From: Blautia luti | GTDB lineage: Bacteria; Bacillota; Clostridia; Lachnospirales; Lachnospiraceae | Assembly: GCF_033096465.1 (NCBI RefSeq) | Contig: NZ_AP028156.1 | Location: forward strand, 3,304,501 to 3,368,500 | Length of the DNA: 64,000 nucleotides | Direction of reading: 5' to 3' | Shown here: piece after piece, positions 53,335-64,000 of the stretch | Position numbering within the stretch: the stretch's first letter is position 1 | Layout of the letters: each line of letters starts with the position of its first letter | The notes under the pieces: generated by a model | What the model was told of the DNA's origin: nothing | The model's database searches: none | What the model saw: only the letters and a program-made list of their open reading frames with translations | Program-made: the position numbers and the translations under genes

Positions 53335-54975
53335 TTAGATGTAATTTCCATCCTCTACATTCTGTATGGTAAACGCAGATTTCTTCTTCACGAAATCAAC
53401 TGCATCTTTTACAGTAATTCCGTCCGGCTGCCAGTTTGCATAGAAGTTATCCAGTCCTTTCAGCGTCTCGTCTTTCGCTGTATTTTCATCAAGAACAAGA
53501 AGTACGATCAGGCCGGCTGCTTTCAGATGGCGGACAGTCTCTGCGTAATTTTCGCTTGCTGCAGGATGGTAGAGGTAAGTGTGTCTTCCAAGTACAGTCA
53601 GTCCTTTTTCTACCTGTTCTGCGAAATCAAGAGTGATTCCTTCTTTGCCGATCGGGAATTCTACCACTACCGGGGTCTGGCCTTTCAGACCTGCGCGAAC
53701 CTGTTCGTCTACTTTACCGATCTGGGATTTATCCTGGGAAACCAATGTTTTTCTTACAACACCGCAGGCAGATGTCATATTTGTAACACGGTCGATGAGG
53801 ATGAGTTCACCCAGAGTTCTGTGTTTGTCGAATTCGTCTACTACGATCTTCTCAGAGAATTCCAGAGTGCAGGATGCGATTTCGTTTTTCTTTAAAGTAT
53901 AGGCGTTTTTCTTTTCGCCTGTATTTACGTCTACGGAATAATTAATTTTTGTAACAAGCCCCGGGATCATCTTTGTGCCAATCTTTACAAAGAAGTTCTT
54001 TCCGTCTGTGAGAGCGTTATCGTCCATCCAGAGGATGTCTGCTTCTACGGAATCTGTGAGGACTGCACCGGAATCAATCGTAAGCACGCATCCACGGGAA
54101 ACGTCTACTTCTCTGTCAAGCTGGATGGTTACAGGCTGTCCCTGTACTGCTTCTTCTGCTTCTTTGTCACCGACAAGGATACTCTTTACATGCGCTTCTT
54201 CTTTGCTTGGAAGAGTTGTCACAAGGTCACCGACTTTAATGGTTCCATTCTCGATCTGGCCCTGAAACCCACGGAACTCATGGTTCGGTCTGCAGACTCT
54301 CTGTACCGGCATGCAGAAACCTTTTTCTGTGTCTTCTTTGATGTCTACGGTTTCCAGATATGTCAGAAGTGCTTCGCCTGTGTACCATAGCATATTGTCC
54401 GATTTAGTTGTAACGTTGTCACCTTCTGTAGCAGATACCGGAATGATAGTTACATTTTCCAGTTTCAGTTCATCGATCAGACCTGCGATCTGGTTCTCGA
54501 TCTCGCGGAAACGTTTCTCATCGTAACCAATCAGATCCATTTTATTTACTGCAAATACGAAGTAGCGGATTCCCATCAGTGCACAGATTCTTGCATGACG
54601 TCTTGTCTGCACCAGTACGCCCTGAGAAGCATCTACCAGAATAACTGCCAGGTCTGCAAAAGATGCGCCCACTGCCATGTTTCTGGTATATTCTTCATGG
54701 CCTGGTGTATCAGCTACGATAAAACTGCGGTTGTCTGTTGTAAAATAGCGGTATGCAACGTCAATAGTGATACCCTGCTCACGTTCTGCCATCAGACCAT
54801 CCAGAAGAAGGGAATAGTCAATGGCGCCGCCTCTGCTTCCTACCTTGGAATCCAGCTCCAGAGCTTTTTCCTGGTCTGCATAGAGAAGCTTTGCATCATA
54901 AAGAATATGTCCGATCAGAGTGGATTTTCCATCGTCCACACTTCCGCATGTAATAAATTTCAATAATCCTTTCAT
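53335..54975 (-). CDS. cysN: sulfate adenylyltransferase GTPase subunit with a degenerate APS-kinase-like tail
   Basis: 546 residues. The GTPase domain has CGSVDDGKST (11-19), GITIDVAYRYF, ADTPGHEEY (88-96) and NKMD (144-147); two beta-barrel domains follow to about residue 410. CysN uses GTP hydrolysis to drive formation of APS by CysD. Residues ~433-546 resemble an APS kinase (LTVLGRHTYL, and LKAAGLIVLLVL for the usual DAGLIVL), but the P-loop is replaced by FPIGKEGITLDF and about 60 residues are missing, so no kinase activity is expected. A CysNC fusion that lost its kinase fits a route that reduces APS directly. It follows cysD by one base. Confidence 0.93.
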   Translation of the reverse strand: MKGLLKFITCGSVDDGKSTLIGHILYDAKLLYADQEKALELDSKVGSRGGAIDYSLLLDGLMAEREQGITIDVAYRYFTTDNRSFIVADTPGHEEYTRNMAVGASFADLAVILVDASQGVLVQTRRHARICALMGIRYFVFAVNKMDLIGYDEKRFREIENQIAGLIDELKLENVTIIPVSATEGDNVTTKSDNMLWYTGEALLTYLETVDIKEDTEKGFCMPVQRVCRPNHEFRGFQGQIENGTIKVGDLVTTLPSKEEAHVKSILVGDKEAEEAVQGQPVTIQLDREVDVSRGCVLTIDSGAVLTDSVEADILWMDDNALTDGKNFFVKIGTKMIPGLVTKINYSVDVNTGEKKNAYTLKKNEIASCTLEFSEKIVVDEFDKHRTLGELILIDRVTNMTSACGVVRKTLVSQDKSQIGKVDEQVRAGLKGQTPVVVEFPIGKEGITLDFAEQVEKGLTVLGRHTYLYHPAASENYAETVRHLKAAGLIVLLVLDENTAKDETLKGLDNFYANWQPDGITVKDAVDFVKKKSAFTIQNVEDGNYI

Positions 54976-54976
54976 C

Positions 54977-55876
54977 CTAGAAATACCCCTCTCTCTTTCT
55001 TCTCTCCATGCTGCCTGCTGCCTCGTGGTCGATCACACGGCTGGTACGTTCGGAGGAAACAGCACTTAATGTCTCATCAATGATTTCGTCCAGTGTATCT
55101 GCATCAGATTCGATGCCGCCTGTAAGCGGATAGCATCCAAGAGTACGGAATCTGACTTTTTTGTACTCGATTTTTTCATCTGGACGGAGTTTTAATCTAT
55201 CGTCGTCTACCATAATAATATTACCGTCTCTGTAGATAACCGGTCTTTCTTTTGCAAAATATAATGGCACGATTTCGATGTTTTCACGCTGAATGTACTG
55301 CCAGATGTCTTTCTCTGTCCAGTTGGAGATTGGGAAAACTCGCATGCTTTCACCTTTCTGGATCTTGGTGTTGTAGAGTTTCCACATTTCCGGGCGCTGG
55401 TTCTTCGGGTCCCATGCCTGAGCTGCGTTACGGAAAGAGAAGATTCTTTCTTTTGCTCTGGATTTCTCCTCATCACGACGGCCGCCGCCGAATGCTGCAG
55501 TGAATCCGTATTTGGTAAGGGCCTGTTTTAATGCCTGGGTTTTCATGATGTCGGTGTATGCGGAACCGTTGTCAAATGGGTTGATCCCTGCTTTTACACC
55601 TTCTTTGTTGGTGTAGACTAGCATGTCGATGCCGTTTTCTTTGGCGATCCTGTCACGGAATTCGATCATTTCGTGGAATTTCCAGGTGGTGTCGATATGC
55701 AGGAACGGGAACGGCGGCTTCTCCGGATAGAATGCTTTCAGCGCCAGATGGAGCATAACGGAGCTGTCCTTTCCTATAGAATAGAGCATAACCGGCTTTT
55801 CACACTCGGCTGCTACTTCTCGCATAATATAAATTGCTTCTGCTTCAAGCTCATCAAGATGAGATAAGTTACTCAT
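54977..55876 (-). CDS. cysD: sulfate adenylyltransferase subunit 2
   Basis: 299 residues of the PAPS reductase/N-type ATP pyrophosphatase fold. The PP-loop is [13 protein letters not shown], with the family segments [17 protein letters not shown] and [15 protein letters not shown], and the C-terminus [22 protein letters not shown]. It adenylates sulfate to APS together with CysN. It lies 117 bases downstream of the AprB-like gene; that gap has no recognised element. Confidence 0.97.
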
Positions 55877-55993: not shown

Positions 55994-56308
55994 TTAATAT
56001 TTGTTTGCATCCTTCTTATTGACCTGAATGGTAATCTTCGTGCCGTCTGGCTTCTCTACTGTCCAGGTGGAAATATCAGGTTTCTCTGACACGATCATGC
56101 TTGCGCCTCTGCCTCCCACATCGGCTCCAAGAAAGAAGCGGATGGCGTCGCGGCTGCATTCTTTGATACAGGATGTGCATCCCCAGCAGTCTCTGACCTG
56201 GCGGATAAAGGCTTTACCGTCTTTGTCCTTTTTGATCAGGTTTCCGGGACAGGCTTCGATACATCTGCCGCATCCTACACATTTACTTTTCTGAATCCGA
56301 ATGCTCAT
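55994..56308 (-). CDS. AprB-like ferredoxin subunit of APS reductase
   Basis: 104 residues with two 4Fe-4S cluster motifs: CVGCGRCIEACP (Cys10-Cys20) and CWGCTSCIKEC (Cys41-Cys51). The C-terminal tail STWTVEKPDGTKITIQV is characteristic of AprB. It is shorter than dissimilatory AprB, as in the assimilatory Clostridia type. It feeds electrons to the flavoprotein encoded just upstream; its ATG overlaps that gene's stop (ATGA). Confidence 0.9.
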   Translation of the reverse strand: MSIRIQKSKCVGCGRCIEACPGNLIKKDKDGKAFIRQVRDCWGCTSCIKECSRDAIRFFLGADVGGRGASMIVSEKPDISTWTVEKPDGTKITIQVNKKDANKY

Positions 56309-58107
56309 CTTTCACCTGCTCCTTTCGCTGCTGTATTTTGTGATATTTTTGAATCTGCTGTCTGTAAATCTGTTGTATCTTTGTGCTGTATTCCGAACGC
56401 TGCTGTCTGACTATCAGCGGTTTCTTTTGTAATTAAATCACGATACAGGATTTTTATCTCGCCGTTTTCCATGCGGGAGTTTACATATTTCATCCAGTCT
56501 TCACTCTGTTCCGGGTAATCTGTGTTCTCTCCGAAGCTGTGCCATCTGGTCTCTTTTCTGGCTGCCAGATGTGCGATAACTGCACGGCATACGATCAGTC
56601 GTTCGCGAAGTTCGTAGATCTGCATCAGTTCATAGGTATCGGCTGCTGCCAGAGTATCTACCACCGGGAGAAGTGCGGCGATCTTTTCCTCTGCTTTTGC
56701 AAGGCTTGTCTCGCTGTATCTGTAGTCTGTGCCGATTCCGCCGGCGTACTGATCCATGATCTTCTGCATGGCCTCTTCCAGCTGTTCTGCATTCATCAGG
56801 GAACGAACGGCACTTAAGTGAGCTTCGTATTCTGCTTTCTTGGCTGCTGCAGTGCCGGATAATTCCTGATCTTTTACTTCTCCTGAAGTTTCTGTATTTC
56901 CAGAAGTTTTTGCACCACTCAGATATTCCAGAATCGCCTCTGCCGCGATCTCACCTTCTGCCAGTGCACCGGTTACATATTTCTGCGGGCAGCCACCTGC
57001 TACGTCCCCAGCGGCATATAAGCCCTCGATGGTTGTAGCTCTGTTATTATCTATCCAGTAACCGCTGGCTGTATGACCGCCTACAATATACGGCTCCGTA
57101 CCCTCGATCTCTATGTTTTCTTCAGATGGACCTTTTCCTGCTTCCATCCATTTCAGTGTCTGGGACGGTGCCATGTTCAGGTAAGCTTTATAAAGATCCT
57201 GCTCCTGTTCTTTGGAAATGCCTTCTGTTTTGAGGTAGCACGGACCGTTTCCTTTTCTGTTCTCCATGACTGTACCGTAAACTCGCTGGGAAGTTGTCAG
57301 TCCATATTTCGTCTCGTAAATATCTCCATGTGCATTGACCTGTCTGGCTCCTACGCCCTGGGCGATCGTTCCTGTGGGAGCAATAGTGTCCTTACATCTC
57401 AATGCGATGAAACGCATCTCAAAAGTCGTCATCTCTGCACCGGAAAGAAGTCCCATCGCGTATCCTGCGCCTGTGTTAAATGGTGGATACCACATTTTAT
57501 GTCTGGAGAATCCCGGGTTGTTTGGTCTGTAAAGTCCGGCCGCACCACCTGTTGCACAAAGGACTGCTTCTGCGTCGATATCATAGAAGATTTCTTCGTT
57601 TACGCTAAATCCTACAGCTCCGGTGATCTTTCCGTTTTCTGTTTTATAATCTGTAATGTTTACATGATTGAGAACTGTAACATTCTCCTGCTCAGCTGCT
57701 GCTTTTGCAAGGATTGGTTTCATGTTCTCGCCGTTGATCTTGATGTTTCGGTTTCCTCTGGCAACGTATTTACCATTCTCATCTTTCAGAATGACCAGAC
57801 CCAGATCTTCCATTACCTTTGTCACATGATTTAATCGCTCTGACATGGTGAGAAGAAGATCTTCTCTTACGATTCCGTGGGCATCCTTTTTGGCATAGTC
57901 TACATAATCCTGTGGTACTCTGCCCTCTGTGATATATGCATTTAATGCGTTGACACCTGCTGCCAGGCATCCGCTTCGCTTAATGTTTGCTTTCTCTGCG
58001 ATCAGCACTTTTTTATCGCTTTTCTGTCCAATCACGTAAGCTGCGAAACATCCTGCCGTACCGCCACCGATAATCAACACATCTGTTTTGATTCTCTCTG
58101 TTCTCAT
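56305..58107 (-). CDS. AprA-like flavoprotein subunit of APS reductase
   Basis: 600 residues from ATG 58107, after CCGGAGGAAAG. The frame is open 17 codons further upstream without a ribosome-binding site. FAD-binding motifs are VLIIGGGTAGCFAAY and GLYAAGDVAGG. The stretch NNPGFSRHKMWYPPFNTGAGYAMG and MRFIALRCKDTIAPTGT match AprA rather than fumarate reductase. It reduces adenylylsulfate to sulfite and AMP. The C-terminal part has a variable linker and a helical domain. Genes for sulfite reductase are not in the window. Confidence 0.9.
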   Translation of the reverse strand: MRTERIKTDVLIIGGGTAGCFAAYVIGQKSDKKVLIAEKANIKRSGCLAAGVNALNAYITEGRVPQDYVDYAKKDAHGIVREDLLLTMSERLNHVTKVMEDLGLVILKDENGKYVARGNRNIKINGENMKPILAKAAAEQENVTVLNHVNITDYKTENGKITGAVGFSVNEEIFYDIDAEAVLCATGGAAGLYRPNNPGFSRHKMWYPPFNTGAGYAMGLLSGAEMTTFEMRFIALRCKDTIAPTGTIAQGVGARQVNAHGDIYETKYGLTTSQRVYGTVMENRKGNGPCYLKTEGISKEQEQDLYKAYLNMAPSQTLKWMEAGKGPSEENIEIEGTEPYIVGGHTASGYWIDNNRATTIEGLYAAGDVAGGCPQKYVTGALAEGEIAAEAILEYLSGAKTSGNTETSGEVKDQELSGTAAAKKAEYEAHLSAVRSLMNAEQLEEAMQKIMDQYAGGIGTDYRYSETSLAKAEEKIAALLPVVDTLAAADTYELMQIYELRERLIVCRAVIAHLAARKETRWHSFGENTDYPEQSEDWMKYVNSRMENGEIKILYRDLITKETADSQTAAFGIQHKDTTDLQTADSKISQNTAAKGAGER

Positions 58108-58206: not shown

Positions 58207-59265
58207 TTAGATAATTACGAAGTCATCTCTTACAGCTTCATTCTCAATCAACTGTACCGTATCGCCACGCAATGCAAAAATCCTGTACAGGAACACATTG
58301 ACCGTTTCCCCTTCGTGGATATCTGCTTTCTCAAGGCTTCTTCTGGCGGTTACTATGGAATCATTGACTCTTACCTGAAGTTCCAGGTTATCTCCTCTGA
58401 AGGAAACCCGTTCAACAACTCCCTGCGATACGGATGTTCTGAACTTCTCTACCTCATCCAGTTTGGAAACTTTTACGAATTCCGGGCGGACAATGATCTT
58501 GTCTGCGCTTTCTGCCTGAGTGAAAGTGTGGAAATCATCTGCATTCTTTAATACAGACGGCTGTCCGAAGAAAGATGCGGTAAAAGCTGTCTCCGGATTT
58601 CTGTAAACTTCTACAGGTGTTCCCTTCTGTTCAATCCGCCCTGCATTTGTGATGATGATCTCATCTGCCACTTCAATGGCTTCATCCTGATCGTGAGTAA
58701 CAAAGATACTGGTGATTCCCAGTTTCTCAATCATCTCTTTTAACCAGCTTCGCAGCTCCTGGCGGATTTTTGCATCAATGGCTGCGAATGGTTCATCCAG
58801 AAGCAGTACCTGTGGATTCGGAGCAAGAGCTCTGGCGAAAGCCACTCTCTGTCTCTGTCCACCGGACAACTGACTGGGATATCTTTTCTCCAGTCCTTCC
58901 AGTCCTACCAGCTTTACCAGTTCTCTGACTCTGGCATCGATCGTCTTTTTATCTACTTTCTGAACTTTCAGACCGAATGCCACGTTGTCGTAGACGGTCA
59001 TGTAACGAAACAGTGCATAATTCTGAAATACAAATCCAATCCCGCGTTCACTTGCAGGAACATCGTTGACTACTTTTCCATTAATAATGATCTCGCCGCT
59101 GTCCGGAGTTTCCAGACCTGCAATCATTCGAAGAATGGTTGTTTTTCCGCTTCCACTTGGTCCCAGCAGGCCGATCAGCTTGCCTTTTTCGATACCGAAA
59201 TTCACATTCTTTGATGCCTGGTAGGAACCATAGGTCTTGTTTATATTTTTTAACTCTACATACAT
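58207..59265 (-). CDS. cysA: sulfate/thiosulfate ABC importer ATPase
   Basis: 352 residues with Walker A GPSGSGKTT, signature LSGGQRQRVAFARAL, Walker B VLLLDEPFAAID and switch histidine FVTHDQDEAIEVA. The C-terminal TOBE-like domain is as in CysA. It powers uptake through CysT/CysW. The start is one base after the cysW stop. Confidence 0.96.
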   Translation of the reverse strand: MYVELKNINKTYGSYQASKNVNFGIEKGKLIGLLGPSGSGKTTILRMIAGLETPDSGEIIINGKVVNDVPASERGIGFVFQNYALFRYMTVYDNVAFGLKVQKVDKKTIDARVRELVKLVGLEGLEKRYPSQLSGGQRQRVAFARALAPNPQVLLLDEPFAAIDAKIRQELRSWLKEMIEKLGITSIFVTHDQDEAIEVADEIIITNAGRIEQKGTPVEVYRNPETAFTASFFGQPSVLKNADDFHTFTQAESADKIIVRPEFVKVSKLDEVEKFRTSVSQGVVERVSFRGDNLELQVRVNDSIVTARRSLEKADIHEGETVNVFLYRIFALRGDTVQLIENEAVRDDFVII

Positions 59266-59266
59266 A

Positions 59267-60091
59267 TCAGGCTTCCTTCTTTCCTTTGTATTCGATCACG
59301 CTTCGGACCACCAGGATAATTACTGCCATGATCACCAGCAGTGAAGATACGGCAAATGCCGGAACATACTGAAACTCATTAAATAAAATCTCTACATGAA
59401 GAGGAAGTGTATTGGTCTTTCCTCTCAAATGTCCGGAAAGGACGGACACTGCGCCAAACTCTCCCATCGCTCTCGCTGTACAGAGTACGATGCCGTAAAG
59501 CAATGCCCATTTAATATGAGGAAATGTAATCTTCCAGAAGATGGTCCATCCGCCGGCTCCCATGAGAGCTGCAGCTTCTTCCTCATCCGTTCCTTCTGCT
59601 TCCAGAACCGGAATCAGTTCTCTGGAAATAAAAGGAAATGTTACAAATACAGTTGCAATGATGATTCCCGGTACAGAGAATACAACTTTAATTCCAAATT
59701 TCAAAAGAAAAAAGTAGACGGGACTCTGTCGTCCGAAAATCAGGAGAAAGATCAGACCTGCAATGACCGGCGAGATTGTAACCGGAAGATCGATCAGTGT
59801 GGTCAGCAGTTTTTTGCCCTTAAACTGAAACTTGGTCAGCGCCCAGGCTGCGAAGATACCGAAGATGGTATTGAAGATAACTGCGAAAAGTGTTGCTTTC
59901 ACAGTGAGGAGAAGTGCTTTGATGGTGTACTCGTCTGTCACCGCAGCCACGTATACTTTCCATCCGCTTCGAAGCGCTTCTGTAATTACTGTGATCAGCG
60001 GGAGGAGGAGCATTACTGCCAGAAATATTACGCTGATCCCGATCAGTAGCCATTTTGTGATTTTCTCTGAAGTCTTTCCATTGTTGTCCAT
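59267..60091 (-). CDS. cysW: sulfate ABC transporter permease CysW
   Basis: 274 residues with six membrane spans and the EAA loop EAEGTDEEEAAALMGAGGWTIF that docks CysA; the C-terminus carries FGAVSVLSGHLRGKTNTLPL, a CysW signature. It forms the channel with CysT, whose stop overlaps its start by one base (TGATG). Confidence 0.95.
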   Translation of the reverse strand: MDNNGKTSEKITKWLLIGISVIFLAVMLLLPLITVITEALRSGWKVYVAAVTDEYTIKALLLTVKATLFAVIFNTIFGIFAAWALTKFQFKGKKLLTTLIDLPVTISPVIAGLIFLLIFGRQSPVYFFLLKFGIKVVFSVPGIIIATVFVTFPFISRELIPVLEAEGTDEEEAAALMGAGGWTIFWKITFPHIKWALLYGIVLCTARAMGEFGAVSVLSGHLRGKTNTLPLHVEILFNEFQYVPAFAVSSLLVIMAVIILVVRSVIEYKGKKEA

Positions 60092-60927
60092 CAGGCATTT
60101 CCTCCTCTTAAGATTCTTGCGTTTCTCTGCTGGATCATACTGTTGAGGAACAGTATGAAAAATGAAACCGCCAGCATTACCAGCGCGATGGCTGTTGCAC
60201 TGGAATAATCAAATTCCTGAAGTTCTGACATAATGATCAGCGGTGTGATCTCTGTGTAATACGGTTTATTTCCTGCGATAAATACGATGCTTCCGTATTC
60301 ACCGAGACATCTGCCAAAAGCAAGTCCGGTTCCTGCAAAAATCGCAGGTTTCAGTTCCGGGAAAATAACTTTCCAGAAGATTGTGGATTTCTTTGCTCCC
60401 AGTACTCCGGCTGCTTCGCTACAGGAGTTGTCCATTTTCTCCAGAACCGGCTGTACGCTTCTTACAACAAACGGGATTCCTACGAAGATCATGGCAACTG
60501 TGATGCCGATCCTTGTGTATGCGATCTTGATACCAAATCTGGCAAAGAAGCTGCCTACCATGCCGGAATCAGATGTTAAGGATGTAAGTGCGATACCGGC
60601 TACCGCGGTTGGAAGTGCGAAAGGAAGTTCGATCATTCCGTCCATGATTCGTTTGCCTGGGAATTCGTATCTCACAAGCACCCATGCAAGGATGATTCCC
60701 ATAATGCCGTTAATTACTGCTGCTGCGAAAGCAGATATGAAGCTGGTGTAAAAGGATGCCAGTACTCTGGCTCTTGTGATGGTTTCAATGAAATCTCTGA
60801 AGCTGAGCTTCGCTGTATAAATCACAAGACTTGCAAGGGGGATCAGAACCACCAGACTTAATATGGAAATGGTAATTCCCATAGAGAGTCCGAATCCTGG
60901 AATCACTGGTTTGTTTCTTTTTTTCAT
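60091..60927 (-). CDS. cysT: sulfate ABC transporter permease CysT
   Basis: 278 residues from ATG 60927 after GAGGTGG; a TTG two codons earlier is less likely. Six membrane spans, the motif LPFALPTAVAGIALTSL, an EAA loop (NSCSEAAGVLGAKKSTIFWKV) and the CysT/U signature CLGEYGSIVFIAGNKPYYTE are present. It is preceded by the sulfate-binding protein gene after about 120 bases. Confidence 0.95.
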   Translation of the reverse strand: MKKRNKPVIPGFGLSMGITISILSLVVLIPLASLVIYTAKLSFRDFIETITRARVLASFYTSFISAFAAAVINGIMGIILAWVLVRYEFPGKRIMDGMIELPFALPTAVAGIALTSLTSDSGMVGSFFARFGIKIAYTRIGITVAMIFVGIPFVVRSVQPVLEKMDNSCSEAAGVLGAKKSTIFWKVIFPELKPAIFAGTGLAFGRCLGEYGSIVFIAGNKPYYTEITPLIIMSELQEFDYSSATAIALVMLAVSFFILFLNSMIQQRNARILRGGNA

Positions 60928-61045: not shown

Positions 61046-62044
61046 TTATCGCTCGTAAATCTCATCAAAGATTCCGCCATCCCCGAAGTGCTTTTTCTGC
61101 ACCTCATCCCATCCGCCATATTCACTGATGTTTACCAGGTCTACGCTCAGATCAAACACATCGCTATGTTCTTTCAGGATTTTCTCATTGGTCGGGCGGA
61201 AGTAATTCTCTGCTTCAATTTCCTGTGCTTCGTCAGAATAGAGATAGTTTAAATACTCTGTCGCCACTTCTCTTGTATCTCTGTAATCCACTACCTCATC
61301 TACCACCGCTACAGTCGGCTGTGCCAAAATGCTGACGCTCGGAGTAACGATCTCGTACTCATCCGGGTAGTCACGCATGGAAAGATAGGCTTCGTTTTCC
61401 CATGCTACCAACACATCGCCCTGTCCGTTCTCTACGAATGAAGTAGTTGCACCTCTCGCACCGGAATCCAGAACTACTACATTCTGATAGAGCTTCTTGA
61501 TGAAATCTTTGATCTGGATCTCGTCTCCGTTGTATTTCTTATCTGCATAAGCCCATGCTGCCATGTAGTTCCATCTGGCTCCACCGGAAGTCTTCGGGTT
61601 GGGAGTTACCACTCCTACGCCCTCTTTCGTCAGATCATCCCAGTCCTGAATGTTTTTGGGATTTCCTTTCTTAACCAGAAATACGATGGTGGATGTATAC
61701 GGGGAACTGTCATTGTCAAAGTTATCTATCCATCCCGCCTTGATCAGTCCTGCGTTCTCTATGGATTCAATATCGTATTCCAGTGCCAGTGTTACCACAT
61801 CTGCATCCAGTCCGTTGGCTACCTCCAGTGCCTGTTTTCCGGAACCGCCGTGAGACTGTGTAACTTCCACATCTTCTCCGGTTTTCTCTTTCCAATGTTT
61901 TTCAAATATTTTGTTGTACTGTTCAAACATCTCTCTGGTTGGATCATAGGAAACGTTTGTAATAGAAACGGTTTTCCCAAACGCCTGTACCGGTGTCAGC
62001 GCCAGCACTGCTGCCAGACCGAATGCAAATATTTTTTTGATCAT
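61046..62044 (-). CDS. sbp: sulfate/thiosulfate-binding protein
   Basis: 332 residues with a signal sequence (IFAFGLAAVLALTPVQAFG) and the Sbp/CysP core: VSYDPTREMFEQYNKIFEKH, SHGGSGKQALEVANGL, ADVVTLALEYDI and the C-terminal NYFRPTNEKIL. It binds sulfate outside the membrane and hands it to CysTW. There is no cysteine in or after the signal sequence, so no lipid anchor, unlike most Gram-positive binding proteins. The ATG has CAGGAGATG upstream. Confidence 0.95.
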   Translation of the reverse strand: MIKKIFAFGLAAVLALTPVQAFGKTVSITNVSYDPTREMFEQYNKIFEKHWKEKTGEDVEVTQSHGGSGKQALEVANGLDADVVTLALEYDIESIENAGLIKAGWIDNFDNDSSPYTSTIVFLVKKGNPKNIQDWDDLTKEGVGVVTPNPKTSGGARWNYMAAWAYADKKYNGDEIQIKDFIKKLYQNVVVLDSGARGATTSFVENGQGDVLVAWENEAYLSMRDYPDEYEIVTPSVSILAQPTVAVVDEVVDYRDTREVATEYLNYLYSDEAQEIEAENYFRPTNEKILKEHSDVFDLSVDLVNISEYGGWDEVQKKHFGDGGIFDEIYER

Positions 62045-62172: not shown

Positions 62173-62586
62173 TTATACTAATACAAGTTCTTCTTTCTCA
62201 GATTCTGTTCCTTCTATATGGAAGGAATTCAGAACCGGGTTCTCATTGTCCATGAGAGAAAGGATCATGTAGCTTGCTGTACTGTCGTATGCCAGTCTCT
62301 TGTCTTCTTCAGATGGCCTGGAAGGGCTTTCCGGGTGGGAATGCCAGTTTCCGAGAGGTACCAGACCGTTGGCACGCATGTCTTTTACTGCTGTAAGCTG
62401 TTCTTTCGGATCCAGAGAAAAATGTTCATTGGAATGGTCAATGTTTGTCAGGCAGTAAACTTTCTCGATGGATTTGTTATTGCCGTCTTTTTTTCCGGCG
62501 ATCAGTCCGCAGGCTTCTTCCGGTAGATTTTCTCTGGCATGCTTTAAGATTATTTCATAGTCATTTTTTGACATTGTGATCATCAT
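62173..62586 (-). CDS. JAMM/MPN+ metalloprotease of a sulfur-carrier system
   Basis: 137 residues from ATG 62586 (AAAGGAGTT upstream). The full JAMM zinc-protease signature is present: Glu24 in LPEEACGLIAG, then WHSHPESPSRPSEED with His82, His84, Ser92 and Asp95 (HxHx7SxxD). Prokaryotic JAMM proteins next to ThiS/MoaD and ThiF homologues (for example Mec+, QbsD, HcyD) cut off residues after the carrier's Gly-Gly or release a sulfur-loaded amino acid. The carrier two genes upstream ends in Gly-Gly-Gly-Arg, a plausible substrate. Confidence 0.9.
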   Translation of the reverse strand: MMITMSKNDYEIILKHARENLPEEACGLIAGKKDGNNKSIEKVYCLTNIDHSNEHFSLDPKEQLTAVKDMRANGLVPLGNWHSHPESPSRPSEEDKRLAYDSTASYMILSLMDNENPVLNSFHIEGTESEKEELVLV

Positions 62587-62599
62587 GTTTCTAACTCCT

Positions 62600-63406
62600 T
62601 TAGATTCCGTCACATTCCGCCTGCTCATAGTCGATCAGTTTTGTGATTGTCGGATGCTCACCGCATACCGGGCAGTTCTTCACATGTTTCGGAAGTTTGA
62701 TCTTACGGAATTCCATTGTAAGTGCATCGTATGTGAGAAGAGATCCTGTGAGAAGATCACCGACTCCAAGAATGTATTTGATGGCTTCCATAGCCTGAAG
62801 GCTTCCGATCACACCACCCATTGCCCCGATGACACCTGCCTGTTTACAGGTAGGTACAGCATCCTTTGGCGGCGGATCTTTGAAGATACATCTGTAACAT
62901 GGTCCTTCTCCGGGAACGTATGTCATCAACTGACCTTTGAAACGAATGATTCCTGCATGAGAGAATGGTTTCTTTGCCATAACGCAGGCATCATTGATCA
63001 GGAATTTCGCCGGGAAGTTATCGGTTCCGTCAATAATGAAATCGTAATCTTTGATCAGATCCATGATATTCTCGGAATCTACGAAAGTCTGGTAAGTTTT
63101 TACTGTCACATCCGGATTGATGGCTTCCATGGATTCTTTTGCGGAAATTACTTTTGGCTTGCCGATATCTTTGGTTGCGTGAATGACCTGACGCTGAAGA
63201 TTGGAAAGGTCTACCTCATCTGCATCTGCGATTCCGATGGTTCCCACACCTGCTGCAGCAAGATAAAGGGCTGCCGGTGCTCCAAGTCCACCTGCTCCGA
63301 TGATCAGGACGCTGGAATTAAGTAATTTCTTCTGTCCTTTTGCTCCAACCTCTTTCAGAATGATGTGTCTGGAATAGCGTTCGAGCTGTTCGTTTGTGAA
63401 TGCCAC
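62600..63406 (-). CDS. ThiF/MoeB/HesA-family sulfur-carrier adenylyltransferase
   Basis: 268 residues. The ATP-binding motif is IIGAGGLGAPAAL (37-42), followed by the conserved Asp pair region FIIDGTDNFPAK, zinc-binding cysteines CYRC (170, 173) and CPVC near the C-terminus, and Cys187 in PTCKQAGVIG as the possible thioester or persulfide cysteine. It adenylates the C-terminal Gly of a ThiS-like protein so that sulfide can form a thiocarboxylate. Its GTG start overlaps the carrier gene's stop (TAGTG), so the two are tightly coupled. Confidence 0.93.
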   Translation of the reverse strand: MAFTNEQLERYSRHIILKEVGAKGQKKLLNSSVLIIGAGGLGAPAALYLAAAGVGTIGIADADEVDLSNLQRQVIHATKDIGKPKVISAKESMEAINPDVTVKTYQTFVDSENIMDLIKDYDFIIDGTDNFPAKFLINDACVMAKKPFSHAGIIRFKGQLMTYVPGEGPCYRCIFKDPPPKDAVPTCKQAGVIGAMGGVIGSLQAMEAIKYILGVGDLLTGSLLTYDALTMEFRKIKLPKHVKNCPVCGEHPTITKLIDYEQAECDGI

Positions 63407-63612
63407 TATCTTCCACCTCCCATGAAGTACAGAAATTCAACGCTGTCGCCTTCTTTTAATGCATAGGTGTCAAATTCTGCTCTGTCGATGAAGTCATCGT
63501 TTACGGATACTGTCACGTACTGAGGAGTTTCTACGTTCTCCTGTACGATCAGTTCTGAAACTGTGATTGCGTCTTTTACTTCTTTTTTATCTCCTGCTAC
63601 TGTAATAACCAT
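63406..63612 (-). CDS. ThiS/MoaD-like sulfur carrier protein ending in Gly-Gly-Gly-Arg
   Basis: 68 residues from ATG 63612, behind GGAGAGC; in-frame codons further upstream lack a ribosome-binding site. The ubiquitin-like beta-grasp pattern is visible (MVITVAGDKKEV, ITVSELIVQEN, YVTVSVNDDFIDR, LKEGDSVEFLYFMGGG). Carriers of this type normally end in Gly-Gly; here one extra Arg follows (…FMGGGR), so the protein must be trimmed before adenylation. The adjacent ThiF-like and JAMM genes supply both activities. The sulfate operon context points to cysteine or homocysteine synthesis rather than thiamine. Confidence 0.9.
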   Translation of the reverse strand: MVITVAGDKKEVKDAITVSELIVQENVETPQYVTVSVNDDFIDRAEFDTYALKEGDSVEFLYFMGGGR

Positions 63613-63744: not shown

Positions 63745-64000
63745 TTAAATGTTCTTGTCAATAATCTCTTCCAGCTCTGCTGCTTTCTTTGCTCCTGTCA
63801 GCCGTTCGATCTGTTTTCCGTCTTTCAGGAAGATCAGGGTCGGTGCTGACATGACCTTGTATTCTTCTACCAGATTCTGTTCGTAAGCTACATTTATTTT
63901 TCCGATATAGATCTGGTCACCGTATTTCTCTTCCAGCTTCGCAAATACCGGAACCATTCGCTTACACGGTACGCAACTGTCGGAATAGAAATCGATCAGT
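63745..64000 (-). CDS. thioredoxin (5' end outside window)
   Basis: The frame is open to the right edge. It reads LIDFYSDSCVPCKRMVPVF, then YIGKINVAYEQNLVEEYKV, MSAPTLIFLKDGK (cis-Pro) and the terminal helix. The redox motif is CVPC rather than the usual CGPC. It is the most upstream visible gene of the sulfate operon; it may donate electrons to the APS reductase or keep sulfur-transfer cysteines reduced. A gap of about 130 bases separates it from the carrier gene. Confidence 0.9.
   Translation of the reverse strand, partial: LIDFYSDSCVPCKRMVPVFAKLEEKYGDQIYIGKINVAYEQNLVEEYKVMSAPTLIFLKDGKQIERLTGAKKAAELEEIIDKNI

What the first reader, a model, noticed from the sequence alone, without database searches (positions are those of the whole stretch)
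62173..63612. Sulfur carrier with a C-terminal Arg cap, plus its JAMM protease and activating enzyme, inside a sulfate operon
The ThiS-like protein ends Gly-Gly-Gly-Arg, not Gly-Gly. Immediately downstream are a ThiF/MoeB-like adenylyltransferase (one-base overlap) and a JAMM protease with all zinc and catalytic residues. By analogy with QbsE/QbsD and the HcyS/HcyD/HcyF system of Wolinella, the protease should remove the cap so the Gly carboxylate can be adenylated and thiocarboxylated. Co-transcription with sulfate uptake and APS reduction suggests that newly made sulfide is carried on a protein into cysteine or homocysteine, an unusual route for gut Clostridia.
Basis: partly seen in the sequence, partly recalled or inferred. 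Interest (0 to 1): 0.8.

Follow-up and report, generated by a model that had tools for sequence, protein, structure and literature searches.

The report
Capped sulfur carrier for methionine synthesis
A gut bacterium makes a small sulfur-carrying protein with one extra amino acid over its working end, next to the enzymes expected to remove that cap and load sulfur; this is a new case of a known pathway, and relatives hint that the same protease may also serve vitamin B1 synthesis.

Summary
A 68-aa ThiS-type carrier ends ...FMGGG-R, overlaps a ThiF/MoeB-type E1 gene by one base, and is followed by an intact JAMM gene in a sulfate-assimilation cluster. Outside the window the cluster also holds a sulfite reductase and TusA. 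The Arg itself is not special: 72 of 72 JAMM-linked carriers read in named genomes carry a cap, of 1 to 40 residues and 34 different sequences, while 113 of 120 listed relatives of this genome's thiamine ThiS end at GGG.

Best reading: the JAMM trims the cap, the E1 adenylates Gly, sulfide or TusA-sulfur makes the thiocarboxylate, and a Wolinella-type MetY uses it for homocysteine. MetY lies in 58 of 80 related loci; the window genome has its ortholog elsewhere. Iyer et al. 2006 described this neighbourhood and capped carriers needing a JAMM are in print: a new member of a known kind, not an unusual route.

The new part is a natural experiment: in 16 of 22 genomes with a JAMM but no dedicated ThiF, the thiamine ThiS is capped (13) or fused to ThiG (3); in 38 of 38 genomes with that ThiF it is uncapped. 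Six genomes go against a strict rule.

The parts
63406..63612 (-). capped ThiS-type sulfur carrier, 68 aa, ends ...FLYFMGGG-R
63409..63411 (-). Arg cap codon (AGA) after the three glycine codons
63416..63420 (-). GGAGG inside the glycine codons, possible ribosome-binding site of the overlapping E1 gene
   Evidence: read by eye
62600..63406 (-). ThiF/MoeB-type E1-like adenylyltransferase, only a ThiF domain found (no rhodanese), GTG start overlapping the carrier stop by one base
62173..62586 (-). JAMM/Prok-JAB metalloprotease, EACG and HSHP-x6-S-x2-D intact; closest solved structure by sequence 2kks
61046..62044 (-). sulfate ABC transporter substrate-binding protein
60091..60927 (-). sulfate ABC permease CysT
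   Evidence: TIGR02139 362.4 bits, cut-off 246.1
59267..60091 (-). sulfate ABC permease CysW
   Evidence: TIGR02140 346.7 bits, cut-off 329.1
58207..59265 (-). sulfate ABC ATPase CysA
   Evidence: TIGR00968 349.3 bits, cut-off 342.75
56305..58107 (-). AprA-like adenylyl-sulfate reductase alpha subunit
   Evidence: NF005331 926.7 bits, cut-off 557
55994..56308 (-). AprB-like ferredoxin subunit (below the cut-off of the aprB model)
54977..55876 (-). CysD, ATP sulfurylase small subunit
53335..54975 (-). CysN, ATP sulfurylase large subunit with C-terminal extension
63745..64000 (-). thioredoxin-like protein; its start (about 64062 in window numbering), tusA and the sulfite reductase gene lie beyond the window end, in L031

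Best explanation
The locus encodes a protein-thiocarboxylate route from sulfate to homocysteine of the Wolinella HcyS/HcyD/HcyF kind. Sulfate is imported and activated (CysD/CysN), APS is reduced (AprAB), sulfite is reduced (sulfite reductase with ferredoxin domains). The carrier is made as a capped precursor; the JAMM protease removes the residue(s) after GGG; the E1 adenylates the exposed glycine; sulfide or TusA-bound sulfur converts it to the thiocarboxylate; a MetY, encoded elsewhere in this genome, transfers the sulfur to O-acetylhomoserine. The JAMM may act a second time to release homocysteine from the carrier, as recalled for Wolinella. The cap must be present but its sequence and length are nearly free. 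Shown: gene content, intact motifs, cap conservation, MetY association. Inferred: every chemical step and their order.
For: Cap: 72 of 72 carriers with a BLAST hit in the 80 loci, 38 of 39 operon carriers in a family sample (the other has lost frame before GGG), and 120 of the 120 best-scoring homologues listed of 7894 are capped; of the 120 listed of 499 relatives of the genome's own thiamine ThiS, 113 end at GGG, 3 have three extra residues and 4 have no clear GGG end. JAMM motif HSHP-x6-S-x2-D in 80 of 84 JAMM-like ORFs, three of the four misses being cut by a contig end. E1: GxGGLG in 80 of 80. MetY in 58 of 80 loci, a CysK homologue in 12, of which 11 have MetY too. The window genome's MetY ortholog L034 falls in a 48-row clade of operon-linked MetY (support 97/87), apart from classical enzymes and from the genome's other sulfhydrylase L033, and has a short loop like Wolinella 3RI6 (17 and 16 residues against 26-27 in three classical structures). 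TusA, sulfite reductase and sulfate genes. In print: Streptomyces carriers with caps MV and C; deleting the JAMM gene abolishes the thioacid products (PMC6006322, passages).
Against: No cleavage, adenylation or thiocarboxylate was tested. metY is not in this genome's cluster, and I recognised no sulfur genes among L034's neighbours, by eye only. 22 of 80 loci show no MetY, several on short contigs. The 3RI6 branch and 11 Bacteroidota MetY rows lie outside the 48-row clade. The genome also has CysK and a classical sulfhydrylase, so free sulfide can bypass the carrier. Six of 80 loci have a related E1 but no carrier that I could see. In the Streptomyces work deleting one capped carrier did not stop the products, which its authors put down to redundancy. 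Loci and homologues are related and picked by similarity, so counts are not independent events.
Confidence: 0.78

Rival explanations
1. The cap is a neutral by-product: a JAMM kept to release homocysteine from the carrier will also trim stray residues, so the stop codon drifts freely and the cap has no role.
For: Cap sequences and lengths look unconstrained (34 strings, 1-40 residues). Wolinella HcyD is recalled to cut both the cap and the carrier-homocysteine adduct.
Against: Drift should also give zero-length tails, the state next to the commonest one (1 residue, 33 of 72); none is seen in 72 or in the 120 listed homologues. In genomes with a JAMM match and a dedicated ThiF the thiamine ThiS stays uncapped (0 of 8 capped), though the same kind of protease is present.
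Confidence: 0.2
2. The tail is a side effect of translational coupling: glycine codons that double as a ribosome-binding site and a stop overlapping the E1 start push the stop past GGG.
For: In 53 of 72 loci the nearest possible E1 start lies within 12 nt of the carrier stop, and 10 more show no start by this measure, mostly longer overlaps; the window has GGAGG in the glycine codons and a one-base overlap.
Against: In 9 of 72 loci the nearest possible E1 start is 16-233 nt after the carrier stop and the carrier is still capped. The capped thiamine ThiS are followed by thiG, not by this E1.
Confidence: 0.08
3. The JAMM is a desampylase-like isopeptidase and the carrier is conjugated to proteins, as Iyer et al. 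2006 suggested for JAB-associated E1 systems.
For: PMC1779556 (passages) proposes it; the best NCBIfam match of the JAMM is desampylase, below its cut-off (84 against 130 bits).
Against: Linkage to MetY, sulfite reductase and TusA points to sulfur delivery; the caps give the JAMM a simpler substrate.
Confidence: 0.07
4. The carrier delivers sulfur mainly to cysteine synthase.
For: A CysK is present in the genome (TIGR01139 458 bits, cut-off 351); 12 of 80 related loci hold a CysK homologue; related neighbourhoods with cysteine synthase are tabulated in PMC1779556.
Against: 47 of 80 loci have MetY without CysK, 11 both, 1 CysK alone.
Confidence: 0.08

Closest known systems
[quoted passage not shown] paper not held, details recalled; cited in PMC6225789)
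   Same: Capped carrier, JAMM, E1, sulfite reductase, sulfate genes, MetY-type acceptor; MetY loop length as in 3RI6
Gene neighbourhood 4e of Iyer et al. 2006 (PMC1779556, passages and table)
   Same: ThiS/MoaD-like protein, JAB, rhodanese-free E1, SirA/TusA, sulfate ABC transporter, ATP sulfurylase, sulfite reductase; low-GC Gram-positives listed
   Different: AprAB in place of PAPS reductase; sulfhydrylase not adjacent in this genome; caps are not mentioned in the passages read
QbsE/QbsD and PtmS1/PtmS2/PtmS3 (PMC6006322, passages)
   Same: Carrier with cap after GG and a protease needed to expose GG (QbsE cap itself recalled)
   Different: Serve thiocarboxylate natural products
MoaD-MoaE fusion cut by DRJAMM (PMC8832034, passages)
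   Same: JAMM frees a C-terminal glycine from a fusion, a parallel to the ThiS-ThiG fusions seen here
   Different: Molybdopterin synthase
PDB 2kks (JAMM) and 2k5p/3cwi (ThiS-like), solved structures
   Same: Closest solved relatives by sequence of the JAMM (E 1e-47) and of the carrier alignment (E 5e-23)
   Different: Deposited as uncharacterized or as thiamine-biosynthesis proteins

Membership tests
Wolinella-type protein-thiocarboxylate methionine system | carrier with residue(s) after GG | tested here: met
   GGG-R
Wolinella-type protein-thiocarboxylate methionine system | adjacent JAMM with intact catalytic motif | tested here: met
Wolinella-type protein-thiocarboxylate methionine system | adjacent E1-like adenylyltransferase | tested here: met
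Wolinella-type protein-thiocarboxylate methionine system | MetY-type acceptor enzyme | tested here: inconclusive
   Ortholog of the operon-linked MetY is in the genome but unlinked
Wolinella-type protein-thiocarboxylate methionine system | direct relatedness to the Wolinella carrier, protease and E1 | not tested
   Wolinella sequences were not fetched; only 3RI6 was compared
Wolinella-type protein-thiocarboxylate methionine system | cap cleavage, thiocarboxylate and carrier-homocysteine intermediate | not testable with these tools
   needs mass spectrometry
Iyer 2006 neighbourhood 4e | ThiS-like + JAB + rhodanese-free E1 + SirA + sulfur assimilation genes | tested here: met
Iyer 2006 neighbourhood 4e | PAPS reductase | tested here: not met
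   AprAB-type APS reductase instead; the table lists genes seen across the class, so not every member need have it
Iyer 2006 neighbourhood 4e | O-acetylhomoserine sulfhydrylase in the neighbourhood | tested here: not met
   absent here, present in 58 of 80 related loci and in several same-genus relatives
Thiamine ThiS (TIGR01683) | model cut-off | tested here: met
   68 bits, cut-off 37.45; the automatic name would be ThiS
Thiamine ThiS (TIGR01683) | thiG/thiF2 partners and free GG end | tested here: not met
   no thiG in the cluster, capped end; a thiG-linked ThiS lies elsewhere in the genome

The most novel reading that the evidence does not exclude
The cap follows the E1/JAMM pair and not the pathway: a carrier becomes capped when it is served by the JAMM-linked E1. 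In gut Lachnospiraceae that lack a dedicated thiamine ThiF, the methionine JAMM/E1 pair was taken over for thiamine, and the thiamine ThiS then gained its own cap or became fused to ThiG, so that one protease gates sulfur flow to both methionine and vitamin B1.
Probability: 0.5. Interest if true: 0.65.

Novelty: new member of a known kind. Interest (0 to 1): 0.45.

Why it matters
Iyer et al. 2006 called the association of JAB with this class of operons mysterious; near-universal but sequence-free caps give the protease an obvious substrate. The route looks widespread in gut and rumen anaerobes, and the carrier is automatically named ThiS. The thiamine natural experiment makes a further question testable: is a cap a routing or gating device that ties a carrier to one E1? 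It suggests shared control of methionine and vitamin B1 synthesis in gut bacteria.

Tried and rejected
Arg as a specific signal: rejected, the first cap residue is C 17, Q 16, R 15, S 11, A 10, E 1, Y 1, K 1 among 72. Known RNA element: no Rfam match in L031 at E 0.1. A strict rule that lack of a dedicated ThiF requires a cap: rejected, six genomes break it (G022, G028, G314, G365, G378, G432). A second E1 of about 490-530 aa near some loci (e.g. L053, L056, L071): a simple GG search showed no carrier of its own beside it, left open. L033 as MetY partner: rejected, it groups with classical sulfhydrylases. Structure prediction was not used, since 2kks and 2k5p are close.

Rows dropped or odd: the thiamine table leaves out G007 (thiF2 match partial and on another contig), G056 (ThiS not read), G082 (capped SSC, no JAMM and no thiF2 found, no thiG seen in the 15 kb read, genome 93% complete: a result against the rule), Selenomonas L091 (uncapped ThiS beside the JAMM/E1 genes; thiF2 not searched), and other genomes whose ThiS was not read. 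Genomes were chosen by similarity, not at random. JAMM matches in G407, G046 and G378 are weak; without them 16 of 21 against 0 of 6. Fisher values ignore phylogeny. Among the 120 listed of 186 relatives of the capped thiamine ThiS, 86 are capped, 4 end at GGG and 30 have no clear GGG end. In the MetY tree one row (L125_genusMetY167) is a wrong reading frame and two rows (L092, L045_metY4) have long branches. In one search the query meant as CysK (L038) was in fact a neighbouring gene (mnmA-like by eye); the CysK count was redone. The gap counts were rough and were redone.

Full report
WHAT IS THERE. On the - strand of the window end lie a 68-aa ThiS-type carrier ending FLYFMGGG-R, an E1-like adenylyltransferase whose GTG start overlaps the carrier stop by one base, and a JAMM protease with its motif residues intact. 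Downstream on the same strand follow sbp, cysT, cysW, cysA, aprA, aprB, cysD and cysN. The genome is one 3.74 Mb contig. Beyond the window (L031) the cluster begins with a sulfite/nitrite-reductase-type protein with ferredoxin domains (Pfam NIR_SIR 113 bits, cut-off 27; below the cut-off of the NCBIfam sulfite reductase subunit C model, 168 against 324), a TusA (Pfam 74.5 bits, cut-off 28.6) and a thioredoxin. A promoter-like TTGACA-17-TAATAT lies before the reductase gene, but the region holds no more such sites than shuffled sequence. The only other ThiS-family match in the genome is a normal thiS-thiF-thiG-thiH cluster whose ThiS ends GGG-stop. One Prok-JAB match was found in the genome.

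THE CAP IN RELATIVES. A scan of genome contigs with an E1 alignment gave 80 loci in named genomes, the best 80 of 590, itself a capped list. 72 have a carrier by BLAST, all 72 of these loci also have a JAMM-like ORF, and all 72 carriers have residues after GGG: 1 residue in 33, 2 in 18, 3 in 7, 4 in 3, 5 in 5, 6 or more in 6; 34 different strings; R 13, C 11, Q 9. Of the eight without a hit, L090 and L108 show GGGQ and GGGR by eye, and in six I saw no carrier. Of 7894 homologues (only the 7999 best candidates were scored) the 120 listed are all capped. In a same-family sample, 38 of 39 operon carriers are capped; the other (L208) loses the frame before GGG. Control: of the 120 listed of 499 relatives of this genome's thiamine ThiS, 113 end at GGG, 3 have three extra residues and 4 have no clear GGG end. 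So the cap must be there but is hardly specified. Overlap with the E1 gene does not explain it fully: in 9 of 72 loci the nearest possible E1 start lies 16-233 nt after the carrier stop and the carrier is still capped.

WHERE THE SULFUR GOES. A MetY-type PLP enzyme lies in 58 of 80 loci, and in 57 loci a member is closest to the window genome's L034 (G000:C1:1122385-1123587), which is unlinked here. A homologue of the genome's CysK is in 12 of 80 loci, 11 of them with MetY. In a tree of 68 rows, L034 sits in a 48-row clade of operon-linked MetY (97/87), while the genome's other sulfhydrylase L033 groups with three classical solved enzymes; 3RI6 and 11 Bacteroidota rows fall outside both. L034 shares a short loop with the Wolinella enzyme 3RI6 (17 and 16 residues, against 26-27). 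Several same-genus relatives keep metY in the cluster. Homocysteine is therefore the likely product. The genome also has CysK and L033 close together, so ordinary free-sulfide assimilation probably runs in parallel.

A NATURAL EXPERIMENT. In three same-genus genomes (G003, G004, G015) the thiamine ThiS, beside thiG and thiH and a few kb from this cluster, ends GGG-SC. I therefore compared thiG-linked ThiS ends with the presence of the dedicated ThiF (TIGR02354 over its cut-off) and the JAMM (PF14464). Without that ThiF and with a JAMM: 13 capped (G003, G004, G015, G220, G426, G066, G321, G128, G298, G326, G165, G207, G422), 3 fused to ThiG (G435, G221, G411), 6 uncapped (G022, G028, G314, G365, G378, G432; G022 is 83% complete). 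With that ThiF: 38 of 38 uncapped, 8 of them with a JAMM match over the cut-off. Fisher, not corrected for phylogeny: 5e-10 overall; 5e-4 among JAMM genomes; 0.0046 with genera as units; 0.0016 without weak JAMM matches. Relatives of the capped thiamine ThiS in the protein search include Dorea formicigenerans ending GGG-SF. Capped or fused ThiS mostly have FM before GGG (12 of 16), as do 70 of 72 operon carriers, while ThiS with a dedicated ThiF have FV (36 of 38); the six uncapped exceptions are three and three (tabulated by hand; Fisher for 12 of 16 against 2 of 38 is 4e-7): a candidate E1 recognition residue. Thiamine synthesis makes no amino-acid adduct on ThiS (established knowledge, recalled), so cap or fusion cleavage is the plain role for a JAMM there.

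HOW IT WORKS. Most likely: capped precursor, JAMM trimming, adenylation, thiocarboxylate, transfer by MetY, possible second JAMM cut. Only sequence evidence supports this. In vivo precedent: in Streptomyces, deletion of the JAMM gene stopped thioacid production thought to depend on capped carriers (PMC6006322, passages). DRJAMM cuts MoaD-MoaE to a C-terminal Gly (PMC8832034, passages).

NOVELTY. The neighbourhood is row 4e of PMC1779556 (passages and table). The Wolinella pathway is known (paper not held; cited in PMC6225789, PMC5764234 and PMC11796402, passages; chemistry recalled). The locus is a new member of a known kind. I saw no report of capped thiamine ThiS or of a JAMM serving thiamine in the listings of the searches, which cover open-licence papers only.

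Noticed in passing
window 56305-58107: AprAB-type APS reductase in what looks like an assimilatory cluster; AprA passes NF005331 but stays below the cut-off of the TIGR02061 aprA model.
   Followed up: no
window 53335-54975: CysN has about 130 extra C-terminal residues beyond the CysN model TIGR02034, where some relatives carry an APS kinase domain (the relatives recalled).
   Followed up: no
L179 and L166/L190, L207: In-frame ThiS-ThiG fusions with GGG at the junction (followed by SGMSKD, EEESD, EEKD) in genomes without dedicated ThiF but with a JAMM.
   Followed up: partly
L228 (G426): E1, JAMM and a classical-type MetY without a carrier gene that I could see beside them; the only match of that genome in the ThiS search is the capped thiamine ThiS, which may serve both pathways.
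   Followed up: no
L045, L053, L056, L060, L071, L073, L075: A second, distant E1 of about 490-530 aa with a JAMM-like ORF lies close to the carrier module in several loci.
   Followed up: no
L191 (G082): ThiS ending GGG-SSC in a genome where neither JAMM nor dedicated ThiF was found.
   Followed up: partly
L031 9770-9840: Palindrome-like TATTG/CAATA repeats just before the sulfite reductase gene, a possible operator (by eye).
   Followed up: no
L031 16794-17729: LysR-type regulator that by eye resembles one found in 10 of 80 related loci, a candidate sulfur regulator.
   Followed up: no
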